Of a stretch of 9,596 nt of DNA, positions 1,071 through 9,596 are shown piece after piece. A program made the translations under genes and the position numbers. The stretch spans positions 1 to 9,596 of the forward strand of contig VAYE01000159.1 in assembly GCA_005883235.1 (NCBI GenBank), written 5' to 3'. Under the pieces are notes generated by a model. That model saw nothing but the letters and a program-made list of their open reading frames with translations, was not told where the DNA came from and made no database searches. The stretch comes from Actinomycetota bacterium. GTDB taxonomy: Bacteria; Actinomycetota; Thermoleophilia; Gaiellales; Gaiellaceae. Numbering within the stretch: the stretch's first letter is position 1; the number at the start of each line of letters is the position of its first letter.

Positions 1071-1835
1071 CTATGCGCAGCGGCTGTGAGACCTCGCAGG
1101 CACGAGCTTGGCATGCTCGGGGGGATCGAAGACGACGAGCTCCGGGATCGTCACCGCCGTCAGATGGCGGCGCCGCACCGCGCGGAGGATGCGGGGCAAC
1201 GCGGCCACCGTCCAGGGATGGATGTCGTGGAGGAGGACGATCGCGCCGGGTCGGAGACCCGCTGTCACCCTCCGCACCACCGAGCGGACGGTCGCCCCGG
1301 GCCGGGCGTCGAGCGAATCGACGCTCCAGCGGACGTCGACGAGCCCGAGCGCGCGGACGGCGTCCGCCTCGGCCGGTGTCCCGACGCCGTAGGGCGGCCG
1401 GAAGAGGAGCGGCCTCACGCCCTGCGTCGCGCGCACGACGGCGGACTGGGTCCGCAGGAGCTGGCCGATCACGTCGCGACGCCCCAAGCCCGCCAGGCGC
1501 GGGTGGCTCCAGGTGTGGTTGCCGACCGCGCCGGCCCGCTCCTCGGCGCGGACGAGTCCCGGCCAGGCGGCGACGCGGCTGCCCACCACGAAGAAGGTTG
1601 CACGCGCGCCCGCGCGCGCGAGGAGCCGCAGCGCGCGAGCGGTGTACGGGCCGGGCCCGTCGTCGAAGGTGAGCGCGACGTAGCGGCCGTGCCGCCCGCC
1701 GCAGTAGAGCGGCACCGCGTGCCGGGCCAGCGCGCCGAGCGTGCTCCGCGTGCCGCCGTCCTCGCCGGGCACGCTCGTCCGGGCCGCGCTCGGAACGACC
1801 AGCGCGAGCACGAGAACGAGGACGGCGCGGCGCAC
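1071..1835 (-). CDS. secreted polysaccharide deacetylase (NodB domain)
   Basis: A 254-residue carbohydrate esterase family 4 enzyme, expected to remove N-acetyl (or O-acetyl) groups from a cell-wall or extracellular polysaccharide with a divalent metal. The N-terminus MRRAVLVLVLALVVPSAA is a hydrophobic signal segment. All NodB motifs are present: TFDDGP at 56-61 (D58 base, D59 metal ligand), NHTWSH at 106-111 (H107 and H111 metal ligands), RPPYG at 146-150, the W170-SVDS strand, and LLHDIH at 201-206. The GTG start (1833-1835) directly abuts the TAG that ends the residual ybaK frame, with no clear Shine-Dalgarno sequence, so it was probably translated by coupling to the now broken upstream gene. 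A second NodB enzyme lies at 6279-6914 but lacks a signal peptide. The substrate cannot be told from sequence. Confidence 0.88.
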   Translation of the reverse strand: MRRAVLVLVLALVVPSAARTSVPGEDGGTRSTLGALARHAVPLYCGGRHGRYVALTFDDGPGPYTARALRLLARAGARATFFVVGSRVAAWPGLVRAEERAGAVGNHTWSHPRLAGLGRRDVIGQLLRTQSAVVRATQGVRPLLFRPPYGVGTPAEADAVRALGLVDVRWSVDSLDARPGATVRSVVRRVTAGLRPGAIVLLHDIHPWTVAALPRILRAVRRRHLTAVTIPELVVFDPPEHAKLVPARSHSRCA

Positions 1836-2172: not shown

Positions 2173-3396
2173 GTGCGTAAGCTCACAGCCGTGGAGGCCC
2201 GCGCCCTGCTCGACGCGCCGCTCGACGAGCTCTGCGTAGAGGCGCGCCGGCTCCGGGAGGCCGGGCACGGGACGCTCGTCACCTACTCGCCGAAAGTCTT
2301 CGTCCCGCTCACGACGCTCTGCCGCGACGTCTGCCACTACTGCACCTTCGCCCGGCCGCCGCGACGCGGTGAGCGCGCGTACCTCACGCCGGACGAGGTG
2401 CTCGAGATCGCGCGCGCGGGCGCCGCGGCCGGCTGTCACGAGGCTCTCTTCACCCTCGGCGACAAGCCCGAGCTCCGCTACCGCGTCGCGCGCGAGGAGC
2501 TCGCCGAGCTCGGCTGCGAGACCACCCTCGAGTACCTGGCTCGGGCGGCGCGAGCGGTCCTCGACGAGACCGGCCTGCTCCCGCACCTGAACCCCGGGGT
2601 CATGACGCGCGGCGACCTGGCCGGCCTTCGCCGCGTCTCCGCGTCGATGGGGATCATGCTCGAGACGGCCTCGGTGCGGCTCTCGCGCCGCGGCGGTCCG
2701 CATTTCGGCTCGCCGGACAAGCTCCCGGCCCGCCGCCTGGAGACGATCGCGGCCGCGGGCGCGCTCGCGATCCCCTTCACCACCGGGATCCTGATCGGGA
2801 TCGGAGAGACGCGGGCCGAGCGGCTCGAGGCGCTGCTCGCCATCCGGGAGCTCGGCGAGCGCTACGGACACGTCCAGGAGGTGATCGTCCAGAACTTCCG
2901 CGCGAAGCCGGGGACGAAGATGGCGCAGGCGCCGGAGCCTCCGCTCGAGGAGCTCCTGTGGACCGCCGCCGCGGCGCGGATCCTGCTCGGCCCCGAGGCG
3001 AGCGTCCAGTGTCCGCCGAACCTGAGCTACGACGACTTCCCGCGCCTCCTCGAGGCGGGAATCGACGACTGGGGCGGCGTCTCGCCGGTGACGATCGACC
3101 ACGTCAATCCCGAGGCTCCGTGGCCCGAGGTCGAGCGGCTCGAGCGCGCGACGCGTGCTGCTGGGCTTGGGCCGCCGGCGCCGGAGCCCCAGTCCCTCGC
3201 CTCCCGAACGGGCACGGACCGGTCAGAGATACGGCCGTTCTCGCCGCCCTCGCGAAGGCGCGCGAGGAGATCGAGCTCGACGAGGACGACGCGACCGCGC
3301 TCCTCCGCGCCCGCGGCGCCGCCTTTCAGGCGGTCGTGCGAGCCGCGGACGGCCTCCGCCGCGAGGTCTGCGGCGACACGGTCACGTACGTCGTGA
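2173..3396 (+). CDS. cofG: FO synthase subunit CofG (radical SAM), with out-of-frame tail
   Basis: CofG is the radical SAM half of 7,8-didemethyl-8-hydroxy-5-deazariboflavin (FO) synthase. It closes the deazaflavin ring of the CofH product in coenzyme F420 biosynthesis. The cluster-binding C50-x3-C54-x2-C57 (TLCRDVCHYCTFA) is intact, followed by family motifs FTLGDKPELRY, HLNPGVMT, GIMLETAS, GGPHFGSPDK, ILIGIGETRAER, VIVQNFRAKPGT, PPNLSYDDFPRLL and GGVSPVTIDHVNPEAPWPE. True CofG sequence ends near residue 331 (base 3165). The last 76 residues (SRRRARRSSSTR and onward) are Arg/Ser-rich frame-shadow of cofH, which is read one frame over. The usual RLP-x-YP-type end of CofG is missing in this frame. 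The GTG start has no strong Shine-Dalgarno; a second GTG lies at 2191. In Actinobacteria cofG is commonly fused to cofH as fbiC, and this looks like that fusion broken by an indel in the linker. The CofG catalytic core looks complete. Confidence 0.9.
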   Translation: MRKLTAVEARALLDAPLDELCVEARRLREAGHGTLVTYSPKVFVPLTTLCRDVCHYCTFARPPRRGERAYLTPDEVLEIARAGAAAGCHEALFTLGDKPELRYRVAREELAELGCETTLEYLARAARAVLDETGLLPHLNPGVMTRGDLAGLRRVSASMGIMLETASVRLSRRGGPHFGSPDKLPARRLETIAAAGALAIPFTTGILIGIGETRAERLEALLAIRELGERYGHVQEVIVQNFRAKPGTKMAQAPEPPLEELLWTAAAARILLGPEASVQCPPNLSYDDFPRLLEAGIDDWGGVSPVTIDHVNPEAPWPEVERLERATRAAGLGPPAPEPQSLASRTGTDRSEIRPFSPPSRRRARRSSSTRTTRPRSSAPAAPPFRRSCEPRTASAARSAATRSRTS

Positions 3397-4457
3397 CGCG
3401 GAACGTGAACTACACGAACGTCTGCTACTTCCGGTGCGGCTTCTGCGCGTTCTCGAAGGGCAAGCTGGCCGCGAACCTGCGCGGGGCGCCGTACCTCGTC
3501 CCGATCGAGGAGATCGTCCGCCGCGCCGAGGAGGCGTGGGAGCGCGGGGCGGTGGAGATCTGCCTCCAGGGCGGCATCCACCCGGCCTTCACGGGGCAGA
3601 CCTACCTGGACGTGTGCGCGGCGATCAAGCACGCGGTGCCCGACCTCCACGTGCACGCGTTCTCTGCGCTCGAGGTCTGGCAAGGGGCGGCGACGCTCGG
3701 CCTGCCGCTCGACGAGTACTTGGCGCAGCTGCGCGGCGCGGGGCTCTCCTCGCTTCCCGGGACGGCGGCCGAGATCCTCGACGACGAGGTCCGCCGCGTG
3801 ATCTGCCCCGACAAGGTGACGACGGGGCAGTGGCTCGAGGTGCACGAGACGGCGCACCGCGCCGGGCTGCGCTCCACCGCGACGATCATGTTCGGGCACG
3901 TCGAGGGGCCCCGGAGCTGGGCCCGCCATCTGCTGGCGGTTCGAGACCAGCAGCGGCGGAGCTGCGGCTTCACGGAGCTCGTACCGCTCCCGTTCGTCCA
4001 CATGGAGGCGCCGATCTACCTGCGCGGGCGCGCGCGCCCGGGACCGACCTTCCGCGAGGCGCTCCTCGTGCACGCGGTCGCGCGGCTCGCGCTTCACCCC
4101 TGGATCACGAACGTCCAGGCGTCCTGGGTGAAGCTCGGCCCGGACGGGGCGCGGGCGGCGCTCGCGGCCGGCTGCAACGACCTCGGCGGGACGCTCATGA
4201 ACGAGTCGATCTCGCGGGCGGCCGGGGCGACCTACGGGCAGGAGCTCCCGCCCGAGGCGATGGAGGGGCTGATCCGCTCGGCCGGCCGAGTGCCGCGGCA
4301 GCGGACGACGCTCTACGGGGCGCCGCCGGTGGAGCGGACGCGTGCCTCCTTCGGCGCGCCGCCGCTCGCGGAGCCCCGGAACCCGAGCGTGAACGACGCG
4401 GGCCTGCGGGCGCCGAAGCGCCTGCTCCGCCCGGGCCTGGCCGCCACGGCGAGCTGA
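3120..4457 (+). CDS. cofH: FO synthase subunit CofH (radical SAM), start uncertain
   Basis: CofH joins the 4-hydroxybenzyl group of tyrosine to 5-amino-6-ribitylaminouracil, giving the substrate of CofG. Recognisable CofH sequence begins about 3216-3230 (VRDTAVLAALAKAREEIEL) and runs to the TGA at 4455-4457. The cluster motif CYFRCGFC (first Cys codon at 3423) gives C-x3-C-x2-C. VTRNVNYTNV, CLQGGIHP, HVHAFSALEVWQGA, LPGTAAEILDDEVR, IMFGHVEGPRSW, ELVPLPFVHMEAPIY and GGTLMNESISRAAGA are all typical. The frame differs from cofG. The start given is GTG 3120, inside cofG (445 residues); its first ~32 codons do not look like real CofH. The next start in frame, GTG 3336, would cut into the N-terminal helix (VVRAADGLRREV). 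No ATG, GTG or TTG lies at the expected place, which argues that the gene arose from an fbiC fusion that lost its frame. The catalytic part itself looks undamaged. Confidence 0.88.
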   Translation: MARGRAARARDACCWAWAAGAGAPVPRLPNGHGPVRDTAVLAALAKAREEIELDEDDATALLRARGAAFQAVVRAADGLRREVCGDTVTYVVTRNVNYTNVCYFRCGFCAFSKGKLAANLRGAPYLVPIEEIVRRAEEAWERGAVEICLQGGIHPAFTGQTYLDVCAAIKHAVPDLHVHAFSALEVWQGAATLGLPLDEYLAQLRGAGLSSLPGTAAEILDDEVRRVICPDKVTTGQWLEVHETAHRAGLRSTATIMFGHVEGPRSWARHLLAVRDQQRRSCGFTELVPLPFVHMEAPIYLRGRARPGPTFREALLVHAVARLALHPWITNVQASWVKLGPDGARAALAAGCNDLGGTLMNESISRAAGATYGQELPPEAMEGLIRSAGRVPRQRTTLYGAPPVERTRASFGAPPLAEPRNPSVNDAGLRAPKRLLRPGLAATAS

Positions 4458-4619: not shown

Positions 4620-5042
4620 CTACCGCAGCGGGTAGACGAGCTTCGTCGAGGTCGCCTCGAACCCGCAGCGGCGGTAGAACGCTCGCGCTCGTTCGCGGCG
4701 CTCGTGCGTCGTCACCTCGACAACGTCCGCGCCACGCCGACGGCCCTCGTCGAGCACGGCCTCGACGAGCCGCTCGCCGATCCTGCGCCCGCGGCGCGCC
4801 TCGTCGACCACGAGCTCGTCGATCGTCCCCACCGGTGCGAGATGGTGGAGCTGAGGGCGGAAGTTCGCGTTCACGAAACCGACGACCTCGCCATCGTCCT
4901 CCGCGACGAGTACGTGGTGCGCCGGGTCACTAAGCAGCTCCGCCAGCGCCGGCGCGAGCTCCGCGCTCCCGAACGGGTAGCCGAGCTGCGCGAGGAGCGG
5001 CGCGAGCGCCTCGGCGTCCGTCTCCCGAGCCGGGCGGATCAC
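4620..5042 (-). CDS. GNAT-family N-acetyltransferase
   Basis: A 140-residue Gcn5-related acetyltransferase that would move an acetyl group from acetyl-CoA to an unknown amine. It opens with the typical beta-1 VIRPARETDAEAL. It has beta-2/3 HHVLVAEDDGEVVGFVNANF, beta-4 GTIDELVVDEARRG leading into the CoA pyrophosphate loop RRGRRIGERLVE (83-94), and the C-terminal VTTHERRERARAFYRRCGFE with the usual Y-x2-C-GF. Length matches a single stand-alone GNAT domain. The GTG start (5040-5042) overlaps the lysA TGA in a GTGA junction, so translation is probably coupled to lysA. It is the last gene of the operon, and its stop almost touches dyad motif copy 2. Its place after lysA hints at an amino-acid or small-molecule role, but the substrate is not deducible. 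Confidence 0.87.
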   Translation of the reverse strand: MIRPARETDAEALAPLLAQLGYPFGSAELAPALAELLSDPAHHVLVAEDDGEVVGFVNANFRPQLHHLAPVGTIDELVVDEARRGRRIGERLVEAVLDEGRRRGADVVEVTTHERRERARAFYRRCGFEATSTKLVYPLR

Positions 5043-6277
5043 GGCTCGAGCGCGAGCAGGTCGTCGATCGTCTCGCGCCTCCGGATCACCGTCGCGACTC
5101 CGTCCGCGACGAGCACGGCGGCGGGACGCGGCACGCCGTTGTAGTTCGAGGCCATGCTCAGCGTGTACGCGCCGGTGGCGGGCACGGCGAGCAGATCGCC
5201 GCGGTGCGGGCGGGGCAGCGCGATCCGGTCGATGAGGACGTCCCCCGACTCGCAGTGCTTGCCCGCGATGCGGAACTCGCCCTCGGCAGGCCCGTCGCGG
5301 TTGGCGAGGCGGGCGTCGTAGCGTGCACCGTAGAGCTGCGGTCGCGGGTTGTCCGACATCCCGCCGTCGATCGCGGCGTAGTCGACGCCGCCGCTTCGCT
5401 TCGTCGCTCCGATCCGGTAGAGCGTGACGCCGGCGCGCCCGACGAGCGAGCGGCCGGGCTCGAGCGCCACGCGGGTCGGCTCGGGCCAGGCGCTTCGGAG
5501 CCGCTCGACGAGCGCCCGCGCGAACTCGTGCGGCTCCGGTACCCGCTCCTCCGCCGAGTGCCTGATCCCCGGTCCCCCGCCGAGGTCGACGAGCCGAGGC
5601 GCCCAGCCGAGCTCCTCCCGGCATCTCCGGCAGAACGCCACGAGCCGGTCGACGGCGAGGAGGCTCTCGTCGACGCGCGCGAGCTGCGAGCCGATGTGGA
5701 CGTGGACGCCCACGGGCTCCAAGATCTCGAGCGCCTCGCGAAGGGCGGCGAGCGCACCGTCCGGGTCGAGCCCGAACTTCGACTCGTCGTGCGCGGTCTG
5801 GATCGACTGGTGCGTCCGCGCCTGGATGCCGGGCGTGAGCCGGACGAGCACGCGGCGGACCCCGGCCCGCGCAGCGCGCGCGACCTCCTCGCCGGAGTCG
5901 AGCACCACCAGGGCCTCCGCCGCCGCGGCGGCCTCGAGCTCCTCGTCCGACTTGTTGTTCCCGTGGAAGAGGAGCTGCTCGCCTCGCACGCCCGCACGCA
6001 GCGCGAACTGGAGCTCGCCGAGCGTCGAGACGTCCGCGCCGAGCCCCTCCTCCCGCAGCAGCCGCAGGACGGCGACGTTCGGGAAGGCCTTGACGCCGAA
6101 CGCCACGAGCGCGTCGGGGTCGATCGCGCGGAACGCCCTCGCCTGCGCGAGGATCGTCTCGCGGCAGTAGACGACGAGCGGCGTCCCGTGCTCGGCCGCG
6201 AGGTTCGAGGCCCGAACGCCTCCGACCACGAGCTCGCCCTCGACGAGCTCGGCGGTATCCGGGAAGAGCTCGAGCAC
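5039..6277 (-). CDS. lysA: diaminopimelate decarboxylase
   Basis: LysA is the PLP enzyme that decarboxylates meso-diaminopimelate to L-lysine, the last step of the DAP pathway. The 412-residue length is normal. The alanine-racemase-like barrel carries the PLP lysine in LVAFGVKAFPN (K63; the FGVKAFPN form, rather than YAxKAN, is familiar from actinobacterial members), HGNNKSDEEL (105-114), VHIGSQ with H195, the phosphate loop DLGGGPGI (231-238) and EPGRSLVG (273-280). The C-terminal beta domain has HCESGDVL (341-348; Cys of the active site from the partner subunit) and GAYTLSMASNYNG (369-381). The GTG start (6275-6277) comes one base after the TAG of the upstream deacetylase gene, and its stop overlaps the GNAT start, so all are likely co-translated. 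An ornithine/arginine-type decarboxylase of the same fold is less likely given the CESGD and SNYNG motifs. Confidence 0.93.
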   Translation of the reverse strand: MLELFPDTAELVEGELVVGGVRASNLAAEHGTPLVVYCRETILAQARAFRAIDPDALVAFGVKAFPNVAVLRLLREEGLGADVSTLGELQFALRAGVRGEQLLFHGNNKSDEELEAAAAAEALVVLDSGEEVARAARAGVRRVLVRLTPGIQARTHQSIQTAHDESKFGLDPDGALAALREALEILEPVGVHVHIGSQLARVDESLLAVDRLVAFCRRCREELGWAPRLVDLGGGPGIRHSAEERVPEPHEFARALVERLRSAWPEPTRVALEPGRSLVGRAGVTLYRIGATKRSGGVDYAAIDGGMSDNPRPQLYGARYDARLANRDGPAEGEFRIAGKHCESGDVLIDRIALPRPHRGDLLAVPATGAYTLSMASNYNGVPRPAAVLVADGVATVIRRRETIDDLLALEP

Positions 6278-6278
6278 C

Positions 6279-6914
6279 CTACGCCGCGAGCAGCTCCGAC
6301 ACGGTCACGAGCTCGTAGCCGTCCCGGCGGAGTGCGGGGAGGATCTCCCCGAGCGCCGCGACCGTTCCCGCACAATCCCGTCGCTCGTCGGGCGGCACGC
6401 CGTCGTGCAACAGGACGATCGCGCCCGGCTCGGCGCCGCGCAGGACGTCGGTCGCGATCTGGTCGGGCGGCGGCTCGGCCCAGTCCCAGGCCTGCACGGA
6501 CCAGAGGATCGTCGGCGAGAGACCCTGCTCCGAGGCGAGGCGCGCGACCCTGCAGGCGTCCTTCCCGTACGGCGGTCGCATCAGGTGGGTCTGCGCCCCG
6601 GCCGCCCGGATCGCCTCGGTCGTGCGGGCGATCTGGTCGCGCAGCACGGCTTCGTCTCGCTCGTGGGCCGCGTCCACGTGGTCGAACGTGTGGTTCCCGA
6701 CCTCGTGTCCCTCGCGCGCCATTCGCTCGACGACCTCGGGCCGCTCCTCCGCGTAGCGCCCCACGACGAAGAACGTCGCGCGAGCCTCCTGCTCCCCGAG
6801 CAGGTCGAGCACCGCCGGCGTCCAGCGTGACGGACCGTCGTCGAAGGTCAGTGCGAGGACACGCCGCTCGAGGTCGTCACGGCGGCAGATGACCGGACAG
6901 GTCAGTCGCTCCAC
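6279..6914 (-). CDS. polysaccharide deacetylase (NodB domain), no signal peptide
   Basis: A 211-residue CE4 deacetylase that is little more than the NodB domain. Motifs in order: LTFDDGPSRWT at 22-32 (D25 base, D26 metal), GNHTFDH at 73-79 (H75, H79), RPPYG at 113-117, the WSVQAWDW strand at 138-145, and IVLLHDG at 166-172. The first usable start is GTG 6912-6914, which overlaps the 3' end of the cupin gene by 13 nt; no Shine-Dalgarno is visible, as expected for coupled translation. From this start there is no signal peptide or membrane segment, unlike the NodB protein at 1071-1835, so it may act in the cytoplasm or leave by another route. Only one base separates its TAG from lysA. Substrate unknown: a wall precursor, a sugar conjugate or a small acetylated amine are all possible. 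Confidence 0.87.
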   Translation of the reverse strand: MERLTCPVICRRDDLERRVLALTFDDGPSRWTPAVLDLLGEQEARATFFVVGRYAEERPEVVERMAREGHEVGNHTFDHVDAAHERDEAVLRDQIARTTEAIRAAGAQTHLMRPPYGKDACRVARLASEQGLSPTILWSVQAWDWAEPPPDQIATDVLRGAEPGAIVLLHDGVPPDERRDCAGTVAALGEILPALRRDGYELVTVSELLAA

Positions 6915-7297
6915 CAGCCGGGAACGGTATCCCCGTCGCCCGGCCCGGTGCTCGGGGCGCCGATCGCGATCAGCTCTGCGCCCTCGGGACCCGCCTCGAC
7001 GGACCGCATCGTCTCGGGTGGGATGCGGACAGCCGTCCATGGCTGCAGGTCGACGACGTCGTCGTCGAGCTTGATGCGACCGCTTCCGGCGACGAGGACG
7101 TAGATCTCCTCCTGCCGCTTGTGCTTGTGCCCGAAGGGCTCGCGGAAGCTCGGGGCGAGCCGCTTGTAGCTCACGCCACAGTGCTCGCACTCCAAGCCGA
7201 CCCGCGCCATTCGGATCTCGTAGTCGCGCTCGTCGAGACCGAAATGCACGCCCTGGTTGTCGACCTCCTTGAGGTTCGCAACCGCGTATCCCGCCAT
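6902..7297 (-). CDS. cupin-domain protein
   Basis: A 131-residue single-domain cupin. The first cupin motif is GHKHKRQEEIYVLVAGSG (56-73: H57, H59 and E63/E64 as metal ligands). The second is weak: after LQPWTAVRIPPETMRSVE the usual His is missing, so metal binding may be altered. C37 and C40 (CEHC) form a small pair that could hold a metal or a disulfide. Function cannot be assigned; cupins of this size include isomerases, dioxygenases and sensors. The ATG start (7295-7297) has a strong GGAAGGAG with AAGGAG at plus 7305-7310, 7 bases away. It is the first gene of the four-gene operon (cupin, NodB, lysA, GNAT) and is divergent from leuS; its promoter must lie in the 7298-7460 gap, but I see no convincing -10 on this strand. 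Confidence 0.8.
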   Translation of the reverse strand: MAGYAVANLKEVDNQGVHFGLDERDYEIRMARVGLECEHCGVSYKRLAPSFREPFGHKHKRQEEIYVLVAGSGRIKLDDDVVDLQPWTAVRIPPETMRSVEAGPEGAELIAIGAPSTGPGDGDTVPGWWSD

Positions 7298-7337
7298 CTA
7301 CCGTCTCCTTCCGTCTGTGGCTCGACGCAGAACCCGC

Positions 7338-7346
7338 TGCTAAAGT
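7338..7346 (+). promoter_or_regulatory. extended -10 promoter for leuS leader
   Basis: TGCTAAAGT is an extended -10 element (TGn followed by TAAAGT, 4 of 6 to TATAAT). No good -35 is visible at 16-18 bases upstream. Counting 6-7 bases from the -10 puts transcription start at about 7352-7354, at or one base before the ATG of the Leu-rich leader frame. The leader would then be leaderless or nearly so, a common mode in Actinobacteria. Confidence 0.45.
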
Positions 7347-7353
7347 CACGGTA

Positions 7354-7374
7354 ATGCAGGAGCTGCTTCTGTAG
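7354..7374 (+). CDS. leucine leader peptide of leuS attenuator
   Basis: ATG CAG GAG CTG CTT CTG TAG encodes M-Q-E-L-L-L, three consecutive leucine codons before the stop. It sits directly at the predicted transcription start, 86 bases ahead of leuS, and is followed by a strong hairpin and an intrinsic terminator. This is the layout of a ribosome-mediated attenuator, in which shortage of Leu-tRNA would stall the ribosome at the Leu codons and favour readthrough into the leucyl-tRNA synthetase gene. There is no Shine-Dalgarno sequence because the 5' end seems to be the ATG itself. A six-codon frame can occur by chance, but a Leu run exactly here, before leuS, is hard to dismiss. Confidence 0.6.
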   Translation: MQELLL

Positions 7375-7378
7375 CGCA

Positions 7379-7411
7379 GGAAGCGAACGCGGCGCCGCCG
7401 CGGCAGCTTCC
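7379..7411 (+). promoter_or_regulatory. leader hairpin upstream of attenuator terminator
   Basis: Two nested perfect stems: GGAAGC (7379-7384) with GCTTCC (7406-7411), and CGCGGC (7388-7393) with GCCGCG (7397-7402) around a GCC loop, separated by a 3x3 internal loop (GAA/GCA). It begins four bases after the leader stop codon. Competing pairings exist: GGAGCTGC in the leader codons (7359-7366) with GCAGCTTC (7403-7410, one G-U), and GCCGCGG (7397-7403) with CCACGGC (7411-7417, one C-A mismatch). The last would reach into the terminator stem and is a candidate antiterminator. Confidence 0.5.
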
Positions 7412-7415
7412 CACG

Positions 7416-7442
7416 GCCTCTCCCGAAGCGAGAGGCTTTTTT
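7416..7442 (+). terminator. intrinsic terminator in leuS leader
   Basis: GCCTCTC (7416-7422) pairs with GAGAGGC (7430-7436) around a 7-base loop, followed at once by six T residues (7437-7442), then G and three more T. This is a textbook Rho-independent terminator, unusual in such GC-rich DNA and placed only 18 bases before the leuS start, so it must be conditional. It supports transcription attenuation controlled by the Leu-codon leader. Confidence 0.75.
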
Positions 7443-7460
7443 GTTTCCGGAGGACGAGCG

Positions 7461-9596
7461 ATGGAGCGATACGACCCGAAGACGATCGAGCCGAAATGGC
7501 AGCGCGTGTGGGCCGAGGAGAAGGCGTTCTCGACGCCGAACCCGCCGCCCGACGAGCTGAGCGCGCACCGCAACAAGACGTACGTGCTCGAGATGCTTCC
7601 GTACCCGTCCGGCGAGCTCCACATGGGGCACGTGCGGAATTACATGCTCGGCGAGGTCGTCGCCCACTTCCGCCGCCGCCACGGCTTCGCCGTCCTGCGC
7701 CCGATGGGCTTCGACTCCTTCGGCCTGCCGGCCGAGAACGCGGCGATCACCGCCGGCCGTCATCCGCGTGAGCTGACGGAGGAGAACATCGCGCGGATCC
7801 GCGGCCAGATGGGGCGCATCGGCTGGGCGATCGACTGGAACCGGATGCTGTCGTCGCACGAGCCGGACTACTACCGCTGGACCCAGTGGCTCTTCCTGCG
7901 GTTCTTCGAGCGCGGCCTCGCCTACCGGAAGAACGTTCCGGTCAACTGGTGCCCGAACGACCAGACCGTGCTCGCGAACGAGCAGGTGATCGACGGGCGT
8001 TGCGAGCGCTGCGGGGCCGAGGTCGAGGCGCGCAACCTCGAGCAGTGGCTCTTCCGCATCACCGCCTACGCCGACCGGCTGCTCGACGAGATGGAGCTGC
8101 TCGAGTCGTGGCCGGAGCGCGTGCTGACGATGCAGCGCAACTGGATCGGCCGCTCGGAAGGCGCCGAGCTCGTCTTCCGCGTCGACGGCCTCGACGTCGA
8201 CATTCCCGTCTTCACGACCCGGCCCGACACGATCTTCGGGGCCACGTTCTTCGTGCTGGCGCCCGAGCACCCGCTCGTCGAGACGCTCGCGGAGGGCACG
8301 TCGCACGCGGACGAGGTGCGGAACTACGTGCTCCACGCGGCCGCGCGGTCGGCCGTCGAGCGCGAGACGAAGGAGAAGGACGGGATTCCAACCGGCCGGT
8401 TCGTCGTCAACCCGGCGAGCGGCGCCCGCATCCCCGTGTGGGTCGCCGACTACGTCCTGATGGAGTACGGGACCGGCGCGATCATGGCCGTCCCGGCCCA
8501 CGACGAGCGGGACTATGCGTTCGCGCAGCGCTACGACCTCCCCGTCAAGACGGTCGTCGCGCCGGCCGAGGGCGAGGAGCCCGAGGGGGAAGGCGCCTTC
8601 GTCGCGCACACCGACAACGAGTGCCTCGTCAACTCGGCGCAGTTCTCGGGGCTGCCGAGCCCCGAGGCGAAGCGCGCGATCGTGACGTGGCTCGAGGAGC
8701 GTCACGCGGCCCGGCCGGCGGTCAGCTACCGCCTCCGCGACTGGCTGCTCTCCCGACAGCGCTACTGGGGATGCCCGATCCCCGTCGTCCACTGCGAGCG
8801 CTGCGGCATCGTCGCGGTCCCGGACTCCGATCTGCCCGTGCTCCTGCCCGAGATCGAGGACTACCTGCCGAAGGGCCGCTCCCCGCTGGCCGCGGCGGAG
8901 GACTGGGTTCGGGTCGACTGCCCTTCCTGCGGCGGCTCCGCCCGCCGGGAGACCGACACGATGGACACCTTCGTCGACTCCTCGTGGTACTTCCTCCGCT
9001 ACGCGGACGCCCGCAACGCCGAGGCGCCGTTCGCACGCGAGATCGTCGACTACTGGCTTCCGGTCAACCAGTACATCGGCGGCATCGAGCACGCGATCCT
9101 GCACCTGCTCTACGCGCGCTTCTTCACGAAGGTGCTGAACGACATCGGCCTCGTCGGCTTTCGCGAGCCCTTCGCGCGCCTCTTCACGCAGGGGATGGTC
9201 TTCTACCGCGGAGCGAAGATGTCGAAGTCGAAGGGCAACGTGGTCGATCCAGACGAGTACATGGATCGCTACGGCGCCGACGCGTGCCGCCTCTACCCGG
9301 TCTTCCTGGGCCCCGTCGACCAAGACGCCGAGTGGCAGGACTCCGGCTTCGAGGGGATGGTGCGCTTCCTGAACAAGCTCTGGCGGGTGGGACTCGCGGC
9401 GGTCGAAGCCCCGGCCGGGACGACCACGGGGACTCCGCTCGCCCGCAAGGCGCACGCGACGATCGCGAAGGTCACCGACGACATCGGGCGCCGCTTCACC
9501 ATGAACACGCCGATCGCGGCCGTGATGGAGCTCGTCAACGAGGTCTCGCGCTCGCCGGAGGATCCAGCGCAACGCTTCGCCGTCGAGACTGCGGTC
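7461..9596 (+). CDS. leuS: leucyl-tRNA synthetase, 3' end beyond window
   Basis: LeuRS charges tRNA(Leu) with leucine in the cytoplasm. The 712 codons present cover most of a bacterial LeuRS. The class I HIGH motif is HMGH at 54-57 (YPSGELHMGHVRNY). A zinc-type insert follows (NWCPNDQTVLANEQ... CERCG). The CP1 editing domain has TTRPDTIFGATF and GTGAIMAVPAHDERDYAFA, with the catalytic Thr/Asp features that clear mischarged tRNA. RQRYWGCPIP and a second Cys pair set (HCERCG, CPSCGG) come next, then DTFVDSSWYFLRY and KMSKSKGN at 586-593. The anticodon-binding domain has begun when the window ends. The ATG is preceded by GGAGGA (7449-7454) at 6 bases. No frameshift is visible. Expression is probably set by the leader at 7354-7442. 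Confidence 0.97.
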   Translation, partial: MERYDPKTIEPKWQRVWAEEKAFSTPNPPPDELSAHRNKTYVLEMLPYPSGELHMGHVRNYMLGEVVAHFRRRHGFAVLRPMGFDSFGLPAENAAITAGRHPRELTEENIARIRGQMGRIGWAIDWNRMLSSHEPDYYRWTQWLFLRFFERGLAYRKNVPVNWCPNDQTVLANEQVIDGRCERCGAEVEARNLEQWLFRITAYADRLLDEMELLESWPERVLTMQRNWIGRSEGAELVFRVDGLDVDIPVFTTRPDTIFGATFFVLAPEHPLVETLAEGTSHADEVRNYVLHAAARSAVERETKEKDGIPTGRFVVNPASGARIPVWVADYVLMEYGTGAIMAVPAHDERDYAFAQRYDLPVKTVVAPAEGEEPEGEGAFVAHTDNECLVNSAQFSGLPSPEAKRAIVTWLEERHAARPAVSYRLRDWLLSRQRYWGCPIPVVHCERCGIVAVPDSDLPVLLPEIEDYLPKGRSPLAAAEDWVRVDCPSCGGSARRETDTMDTFVDSSWYFLRYADARNAEAPFAREIVDYWLPVNQYIGGIEHAILHLLYARFFTKVLNDIGLVGFREPFARLFTQGMVFYRGAKMSKSKGNVVDPDEYMDRYGADACRLYPVFLGPVDQDAEWQDSGFEGMVRFLNKLWRVGLAAVEAPAGTTTGTPLARKAHATIAKVTDDIGRRFTMNTPIAAVMELVNEVSRSPEDPAQRFAVETAV

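What the first reader, a model, noticed from the sequence alone, without database searches (positions are those of the whole stretch)
7338..7460. Leaderless Leu-Leu-Leu leader peptide and terminator ahead of leuS
Between an extended -10 (7338-7346) and leuS lie, in order, a frame reading M-Q-E-L-L-L-stop whose ATG is at the predicted +1, a strong hairpin, an intrinsic terminator with six T, and the leuS Shine-Dalgarno. Ribosome-mediated attenuation by a leader with runs of the cognate codon is established for amino-acid operons such as leu and his. Controlling an aminoacyl-tRNA synthetase this way, with a leader whose start codon is the mRNA 5' end, is less usual, since synthetases in many bacteria use T-boxes. 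The mechanism here is inferred.
Basis: partly seen in the sequence, partly recalled or inferred. Interest (0 to 1): 0.72.

Follow-up and report, generated by a model that had tools for sequence, protein, structure and literature searches.

The report
Six-codon leucine sensor before leuS
A tiny six-codon frame rich in leucine codons, a hairpin and a transcription stop signal sit in front of the leucyl-tRNA synthetase gene and are conserved in related bacteria, so the gene is very probably switched by leucine supply; the kind of switch is known from Streptomyces, but this version is unusually short and the expected rival hairpin was not found.

Summary
In detail: TGcTAAAGT (7338-7346), ATG at 7354, M-Q-E-L-L-L-stop, a hairpin (7379-7411), a terminator with six T (7415-7442), a Shine-Dalgarno and leuS (7461). 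It is no accident. I collected 72 such leaders (window plus 71 loci of related genomes); 55 of 72 encode exactly six residues. In a control that ignores the leader, a leaderless tandem-Leu frame lies upstream of leuS in 50 of 57 sequences with the terminator and 1 of 53 without it. New details: the codon two before the stop is CTT or CTC in 67 of 68 short leaders, never CTG; P1 most often starts 10 nt after it; the hairpin's outer stem coevolves. No antiterminator that excludes the terminator was found. Leucine-sensing attenuation of leuS is already described for Streptomyces (PMC1262725), with a leaderless leader peptide in S. lividans (PMC8079986), so the kind is known. My specific proposal, unproven: a ribosome stalled at the CUY codon sits against the hairpin, which folds away the spacer and brings it against RNA polymerase, so the terminator cannot form. 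New variant of a known kind; no expression data.

The parts
7338..7346 (+). extended -10 promoter element TGcTAAAGT
   Evidence: sequence; TAnnnT starting 13-17 nt before the leader start in 71 of 72 leaders, with TGn before it in 52 of 71. I chose start codons partly for this distance; the control that is free of that choice is
7354..7374 (+). leader frame ATG CAG GAG CTG CTT CTG TAG (MQELLL), start codon at the predicted mRNA 5' end
   Evidence: six residues in 55 of 72, two or more consecutive Leu codons in 70 of 72
7366..7368 (+). sensor codon CTT (inferred), second codon before the stop, 10 nt before the hairpin
   Evidence: CTT 51 and CTC 16 of 68 short leaders at this place, CTG none
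7379..7411 (+). hairpin P1: outer stem 7379-7384/7406-7411, inner stem 7388-7393/7397-7402
   Evidence: fold; outer stem coevolves, z -6.6, 0 of 2000 permutations; pair counts; not drawn by RNAalifold
7415..7442 (+). intrinsic terminator: stem GGCCTCTC/GAGAGGCT and six T
   Evidence: 99.1% of cells paired in 43 sequences, which had been picked for CCTCT...AGAGG
7449..7453 (+). Shine-Dalgarno GGAGG of leuS
   Evidence: sequence
7461..9596 (+). leuS, leucyl-tRNA synthetase, runs off the window
   Evidence: TIGR00396

Best explanation
A leucine-sensing, ribosome-mediated transcription attenuator of leuS. Transcription starts at or next to the A of ATG 7354 and a ribosome starts directly on the 5' end (inferred). 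If charged tRNA-Leu is plentiful, the ribosome reaches the stop codon, where it covers the 5' arm of P1, and then leaves; the terminator folds and transcription ends before leuS. If charged tRNA-Leu is scarce, it stalls with the CUY codon in the A site. Its front edge then lies about one nucleotide before P1, so P1 folds against it. P1 in turn ends only about 3-5 nt before the terminator, so ribosome, P1 and RNA polymerase are packed together and the terminator hairpin has no room: leuS is transcribed. P1 may also act as a pause hairpin. Shown here by comparison: the elements, their spacing, the pairing of P1 and terminator, and their link to leuS. Inferred: the response to leucine, and that crowding rather than an antiterminator does the switching. 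The confidence given is for leucine-sensing attenuation as such; for the crowding step alone I give about 0.35.
For: Leaderless Leu frame, P1, terminator and leuS together in 72 leaders, none identical; control 50 of 57 against 1 of 53. CTY at the second codon before the stop in 67 of 68 short leaders, although CTG makes up 330 of 740 Leu codons of leuS in 22 of these loci. CTT is 92 of 174 leader Leu codons against 24 of 740 in leuS. Spacing: 10 nt from the last CTY codon to P1 in 40 of 72, range 6-11, and 3-5 nt from P1 to the GCC of the terminator in 50 of 72, range 0-6; stop to the first GG 4 nt in 53 of 68. In the four 11-residue leaders the frame runs on past the Leu codons, yet P1 starts 10-11 nt after the last CTT, so the Leu codon rather than the stop seems to set the register. 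With the CUY codon in the A site a median of 5 nt stay unpaired between ribosome and terminator; with the stop in the A site 12 (17 in the window), and the fold weakens from -21.7 to -11.8 kcal/mol (medians, 72 leaders; the ribosome front edge 9 nt past the A-site codon is recalled, not from a call). The P1 outer stem coevolves (z -6.6).
Against: No expression, 5'-end or starvation data. The terminator arms pair with mean probability 0.85 or more in every full-length state computed, stalled states included, so thermodynamics alone predicts no switch. Leader and terminator 3' arm are complementary beyond what leuS codon usage predicts (z -5.5), which the crowding model does not need. Two rival pairings have weak permutation signals: Leu codons with terminator 3' arm (46 of 2000) and Leu codons with P1 3' arm (93 of 2000). 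In the Streptosporangium, Thermoactinospora, Nonomuraea, Microlunatus and L063 leuS leaders the last CTT lies only about 5 nt before the hairpin (by eye), so the 10-nt register is not general. Five leuS loci kept the terminator without a Leu leader frame (L122, L140, L153, L166, L224).
Confidence: 0.8

Rival explanations
1. Classical attenuator (same leucine logic, other switching step): P1 is the antiterminator and takes a few bases of the terminator's 5' arm, as the boundary GCC does in the C. glutamicum ilvBNC attenuator.
For: P1 and terminator are adjacent; ilvBNC uses overlapping bases GCC (PMC11857589, passages); in the window two pairs (7375-7415, 7376-7414) can extend P1 onto the first terminator base.
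Against: The flank of P1 pairs with the gap and terminator 5' arm worse than permuted partners do (z +2.9; 1999 of 2000 permutations at least as stable); a ribosome stalled at the CUY codon would cover that flank; the terminator still folds in that state.
Confidence: 0.25
2. The untranslated leader itself is the antiterminator: its CUUCU stretch pairs with the terminator 3' arm GAGAGGC, so leuS is read when the leader is not being translated.
For: Leader-terminator duplex stronger than with Leu codons resampled from leuS usage (z -5.5); it appears in the lowest-energy fold of L090 and L003; weak permutation signal (46 of 2000).
Against: Would turn leuS off when the ribosome stalls on Leu codons; the local terminator hairpin should form first; in the full ribosome-free RNA the terminator 3' arm pairs with its own 5' arm at 0.85 and with the last three leader codons at 0.11; CTT is also present in the five leuS leaders of other groups with different terminator stems that I looked at (by eye).
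Confidence: 0.1
3. Constitutive terminator with a small leaderless frame that only serves translation initiation or mRNA stability; no leucine response.
For: No functional data exist here; the leader can be lost while the terminator stays.
Against: Leu codons are kept while other leader residues vary, CTY is fixed at one place, and the same layout stands before ilvB-like and leuA-like genes elsewhere.
Confidence: 0.08
4. A T-box, or LeuS or another protein binding P1.
For: Many synthetase genes of other bacteria use T-boxes (recalled; also said of Firmicutes in PMC1262725).
Against: No Rfam family at its gathering score in the window; a lax search of 7290-7480 gave six sub-threshold matches, no T-box; P1 is variable in sequence.
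Confidence: 0.04

Closest known systems
Candidate attenuators before leuS in Streptomyces coelicolor and S. avermitilis (PMC1262725); LeuL2 of S. lividans, MRAVRLLLSEPR, leaderless (PMC8079986)
   Same: same gene, Leu-codon leader, leaderless start (S. lividans), terminator before leuS
   Different: 12 residues in S. lividans against six here; antiterminator proposed in the 2005 paper, none found here; different class
ilvBNC attenuator of Corynebacterium / ilvB-II motif (PMC11857589, PMC10272879)
   Same: leader peptide without 5' leader (C. glutamicum), CUU among the control codons, adjacent hairpins before an intrinsic terminator
   Different: other gene, usually 15-17 residue leader, terminator and antiterminator overlap by GCC, mutational support
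pheST attenuator of gamma-proteobacteria
   Same: a synthetase operon under leader-peptide attenuation (named in PMC1262725)
   Different: longer leader with ribosome binding site and mutually exclusive hairpins (recalled)
LEU element before actinobacterial leuA (PMC1262725)
   Same: leucine codons in a leader of a leucine gene
   Different: conserved pseudoknot, base stem of Leu codons with the Shine-Dalgarno, not a terminator switch

Membership tests
ribosome-mediated transcription attenuator (leader-peptide type) | short frame with codons of the regulated amino acid | tested here: met
   70 of 72 leaders have consecutive Leu codons
ribosome-mediated transcription attenuator (leader-peptide type) | intrinsic terminator between leader and gene | tested here: met
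ribosome-mediated transcription attenuator (leader-peptide type) | antiterminator that excludes the terminator | tested here: inconclusive
   none found by masked folding (45 leaders) or clearly by coevolution (68 leaders); invariant pairs would escape the second test
ribosome-mediated transcription attenuator (leader-peptide type) | readthrough rises when the amino acid is scarce | not testable with these tools
   needs expression data
actinobacterial leuS attenuator as in Streptomyces | Leu leader at leaderless distance from a -10 and terminator before leuS | tested here: met
   same layout by eye in Streptosporangium, Nonomuraea, Thermoactinospora and Microlunatus loci, though model R1 matched the first three only weakly (16.9-23.1 bits) and not the fourth
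T-box | T-box covariance model match | tested here: not met
LEU element | pseudoknot of Leu codons with the gene's Shine-Dalgarno | not tested
   no model at hand

The most novel reading that the evidence does not exclude
Attenuation without an antiterminator: a hairpin of fixed place but free sequence folds away the spacer so that a ribosome stalled at one CUY codon is pressed against RNA polymerase and blocks the terminator by crowding. The sensor is one codon read by one tRNA-Leu isoacceptor (GAG anticodon, recalled), in a leader peptide shorter than any named in the papers I read.
Probability: 0.3. Interest if true: 0.72.

Novelty: new variant of a known kind. Interest (0 to 1): 0.45.

Why it matters
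It extends leader-peptide control of a tRNA synthetase gene from Streptomyces to a good part of another actinobacterial class (77 of 399 genomes matched), and reduces the leader to six codons starting at the presumed mRNA end. If crowding replaces the antiterminator, attenuators could work with two independent hairpins, which searches for mutually exclusive hairpins would miss. The conserved CUY codon and its spacing make that directly testable.

Tried and rejected
Antiterminators tried and not clearly supported: P1 flank with terminator 5' arm (z +2.9), P1 5' arm with terminator 5' arm (z -0.5), leader Leu codons with P1 5' arm (z +1.5), P1 3' arm with terminator 3' arm (z +0.1), leader Leu codons with P1 3' arm (z -1.7) and with terminator 3' arm (z -2.0). 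A pairing of CACGGCC before the terminator with GCCG of the inner stem looked good in L003 but is not kept in others (by eye). T-box and other Rfam families: no. RNAalifold on the MAFFT alignment drew only the inner stem and terminator, not the outer stem; the outer stem rests. The CTT excess may reflect a rare codon, an open 5' end (leaders are less self-structured than codon-resampled ones) or pairing with the terminator; one search does not settle it.

Limits: the 110 upstream regions are the window, 20 of the 80 loci and 89 stretches (29 loci, 60 fetched) chosen from the best-scoring leuS matches of 299 genomes, so 57 of 110 is no estimate of frequency; 77 of 399 is nearer. The 57 were picked with a pattern CCTCT...AGAGG, so the near-constant terminator stem is partly selection; 20 further leaders came from a model built on them (of 26 stretches fetched; L222-L226 and L246 were not used). 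Of the 52 first leaders I gave 43 to the alignment; left out were the four 11-residue leaders, L104, L105, L120 and the near-copies L098 and L101. One search used 45 short leaders. In the tree L094 and L018 count as 'none' although L094 is a leader cut by a contig end and L018 has a divergent leader-like frame and terminator. In one search the stretch 3200-4457 was read in the wrong frame and says nothing. Papers: passages only of PMC1262725, PMC8079986, PMC11857589, PMC10272879; search listings otherwise. Searches for prior print: open-licence papers only.

Full report
What is there. The window holds leuS (7461 to the end; TIGR00396) next to a divergent cupin-like gene (6902-7297, minus strand; PF07883 below its cut-off). 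Between them stand, in order, an extended -10 TGcTAAAGT, ATG CAG GAG CTG CTT CTG TAG, a hairpin P1 at 7379-7411, a terminator at 7415-7442 and a Shine-Dalgarno. From one sequence alone this is only suggestive: total folding energy is as in shuffles (z -0.57) and one terminator was found against 0.3 expected.

Conservation. leuS loci came from named contigs (80 loci, of which 20 were used) and from 299 genomes of the class of one relative; 60 further stretches were fetched. The class holds records titled Thermoleophilia (L007, L018); the window's own genome is not held. Of 110 upstream regions, 57 hold the terminator pattern and 53 do not. Ignoring the leader in that choice, a frame with tandem Leu codons at leaderless distance from TAnnnT lies upstream in 50 of 57, and in 1 of the other 53; mononucleotide shuffles give 0.18%. 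The one exception, L171, has leader and P1 but no terminator or leuS start in that sequence. Adding 20 loci found with the model R1 gives 72 leaders, window included, none identical: 6 residues in 55, 7 in 11, 8 in 2, 11 in 4. R1 matched 77 of 399 genomes of the class at E 0.001 and 13 of 296 of the phylum at E 0.01. In the class the 65 places of 64 bits or more and the next 7 lie before leuS; of the last six, one is a leuS without a leader and five lie elsewhere, two of them before leuA-like genes. In a LeuS tree of 45 rows the leader label needs 4 changes against 15.3 for shuffled labels, so it is mainly inherited, with some losses.

Anatomy. Most leaders read M-x-Q/E-L-L-x-stop. Of 68 leaders of up to 8 residues the second codon before the stop is CTT in 51 and CTC in 16, never CTG; leuS genes of 22 of these loci use CTC 353, CTG 330, CTT 24, TTG 23, CTA 10 times. 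P1 starts 10 nt after the last CTY codon in 40 of 72 (range 6-11) and ends 3-5 nt before the GCC of the terminator in 50 of 72 (range 0-6). The four 11-residue leaders keep 10-11 nt from the last CTT to P1. The outer P1 arms pair better with their own partners than with those of other species (mean -9.58 against -8.11 kcal/mol, 0 of 2000 permutations), as do the terminator arms (0 of 2000). Permutation ignores kinship, so these figures are not probabilities. In pair counts on 43 leaders, 7 of 20 pairs have a change on both sides against 3.2 in shuffles. RNAalifold itself did not draw the outer stem.

Mechanism. I looked for an antiterminator. Folding 45 leaders with the 5' part masked at several ribosome positions leaves the terminator arms paired at 0.85-1.00. 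Of nine other segment pairings none comes near P1 or the terminator; the strongest are Leu codons with the terminator 3' arm (z -2.0, 46 of 2000) and with the P1 3' arm (z -1.7, 93 of 2000). What does change with ribosome position is P1: with the CUY codon in the A site the front edge, 9 nt past that codon (recalled), stops just before P1, which folds (median -21.7 kcal/mol) and leaves a median of 5 unpaired nt up to the terminator; with the stop codon in the A site the 5' arm of P1 is covered, and 12 nt (17 in the window) stay unpaired. I therefore propose that stalling matters because P1 then packs ribosome and RNA polymerase together and denies room to the terminator. This is inference. Rivals are a minimal base overlap as in ilvBNC (PMC11857589) and pairing of the untranslated leader with the terminator, for which the codon choice gives some support (z -5.5).

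Known or new. Attenuators before leuS were predicted in two Streptomyces species in 2005 (PMC1262725) and a leaderless LeuL2 peptide with terminator was listed for S. lividans (PMC8079986). By eye the same layout stands before leuS in Streptosporangium, Thermoactinospora, Nonomuraea and Microlunatus (R1 matches the first three weakly and not the fourth), and before ilvB-like and leuA-like genes in other genomes of the phylum. So this is a known kind. New here, as far as my searches go: its spread in this class, its six-codon form, the fixed CUY sensor with its spacing, and the lack of a detectable antiterminator. Searches for leuS with uORF and attenuation, for Thermoleophilia with leader peptide, and for stalled ribosome with terminator hairpin and steric returned no paper, within open-licence papers.

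Noticed in passing
L213, L217, L218 (ilvB-like) and L210 (leuA-like): The same layout - a frame with CTT/CTC runs (ending LLLVSR or LLLT), stop, hairpin, 3-4 nt, a terminator starting CCTCTC - lies before an acetolactate synthase-like gene and a 2-isopropylmalate synthase-like gene in other genomes of the phylum (genes named by eye from their sequences).
   Followed up: partly
L122, L140, L153, L166, L224; and L171: Five leuS loci keep the terminator but have no Leu leader frame; L171 is the reverse, leader and P1 without terminator and leuS start. Real deletions or assembly faults not decided.
   Followed up: no
L214, L225: Before a leuA-like gene, a TATCAT-ATG start is followed by an intrinsic terminator inside the same frame (MASVFVDNPVSQEPASPAGGFFVLP...SLLSLLLLP...), with a run of Leu codons after the terminator.
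   Followed up: no
window 2173-4457: Two overlapping frames that look like radical SAM enzymes (PF04055 for the first; the second by eye only).
   Followed up: no
window 1071-1835 and 6279-6890, minus strand: Two polysaccharide deacetylase genes (PF01522), with a diaminopimelate decarboxylase gene lysA at 5039-6277.
   Followed up: no
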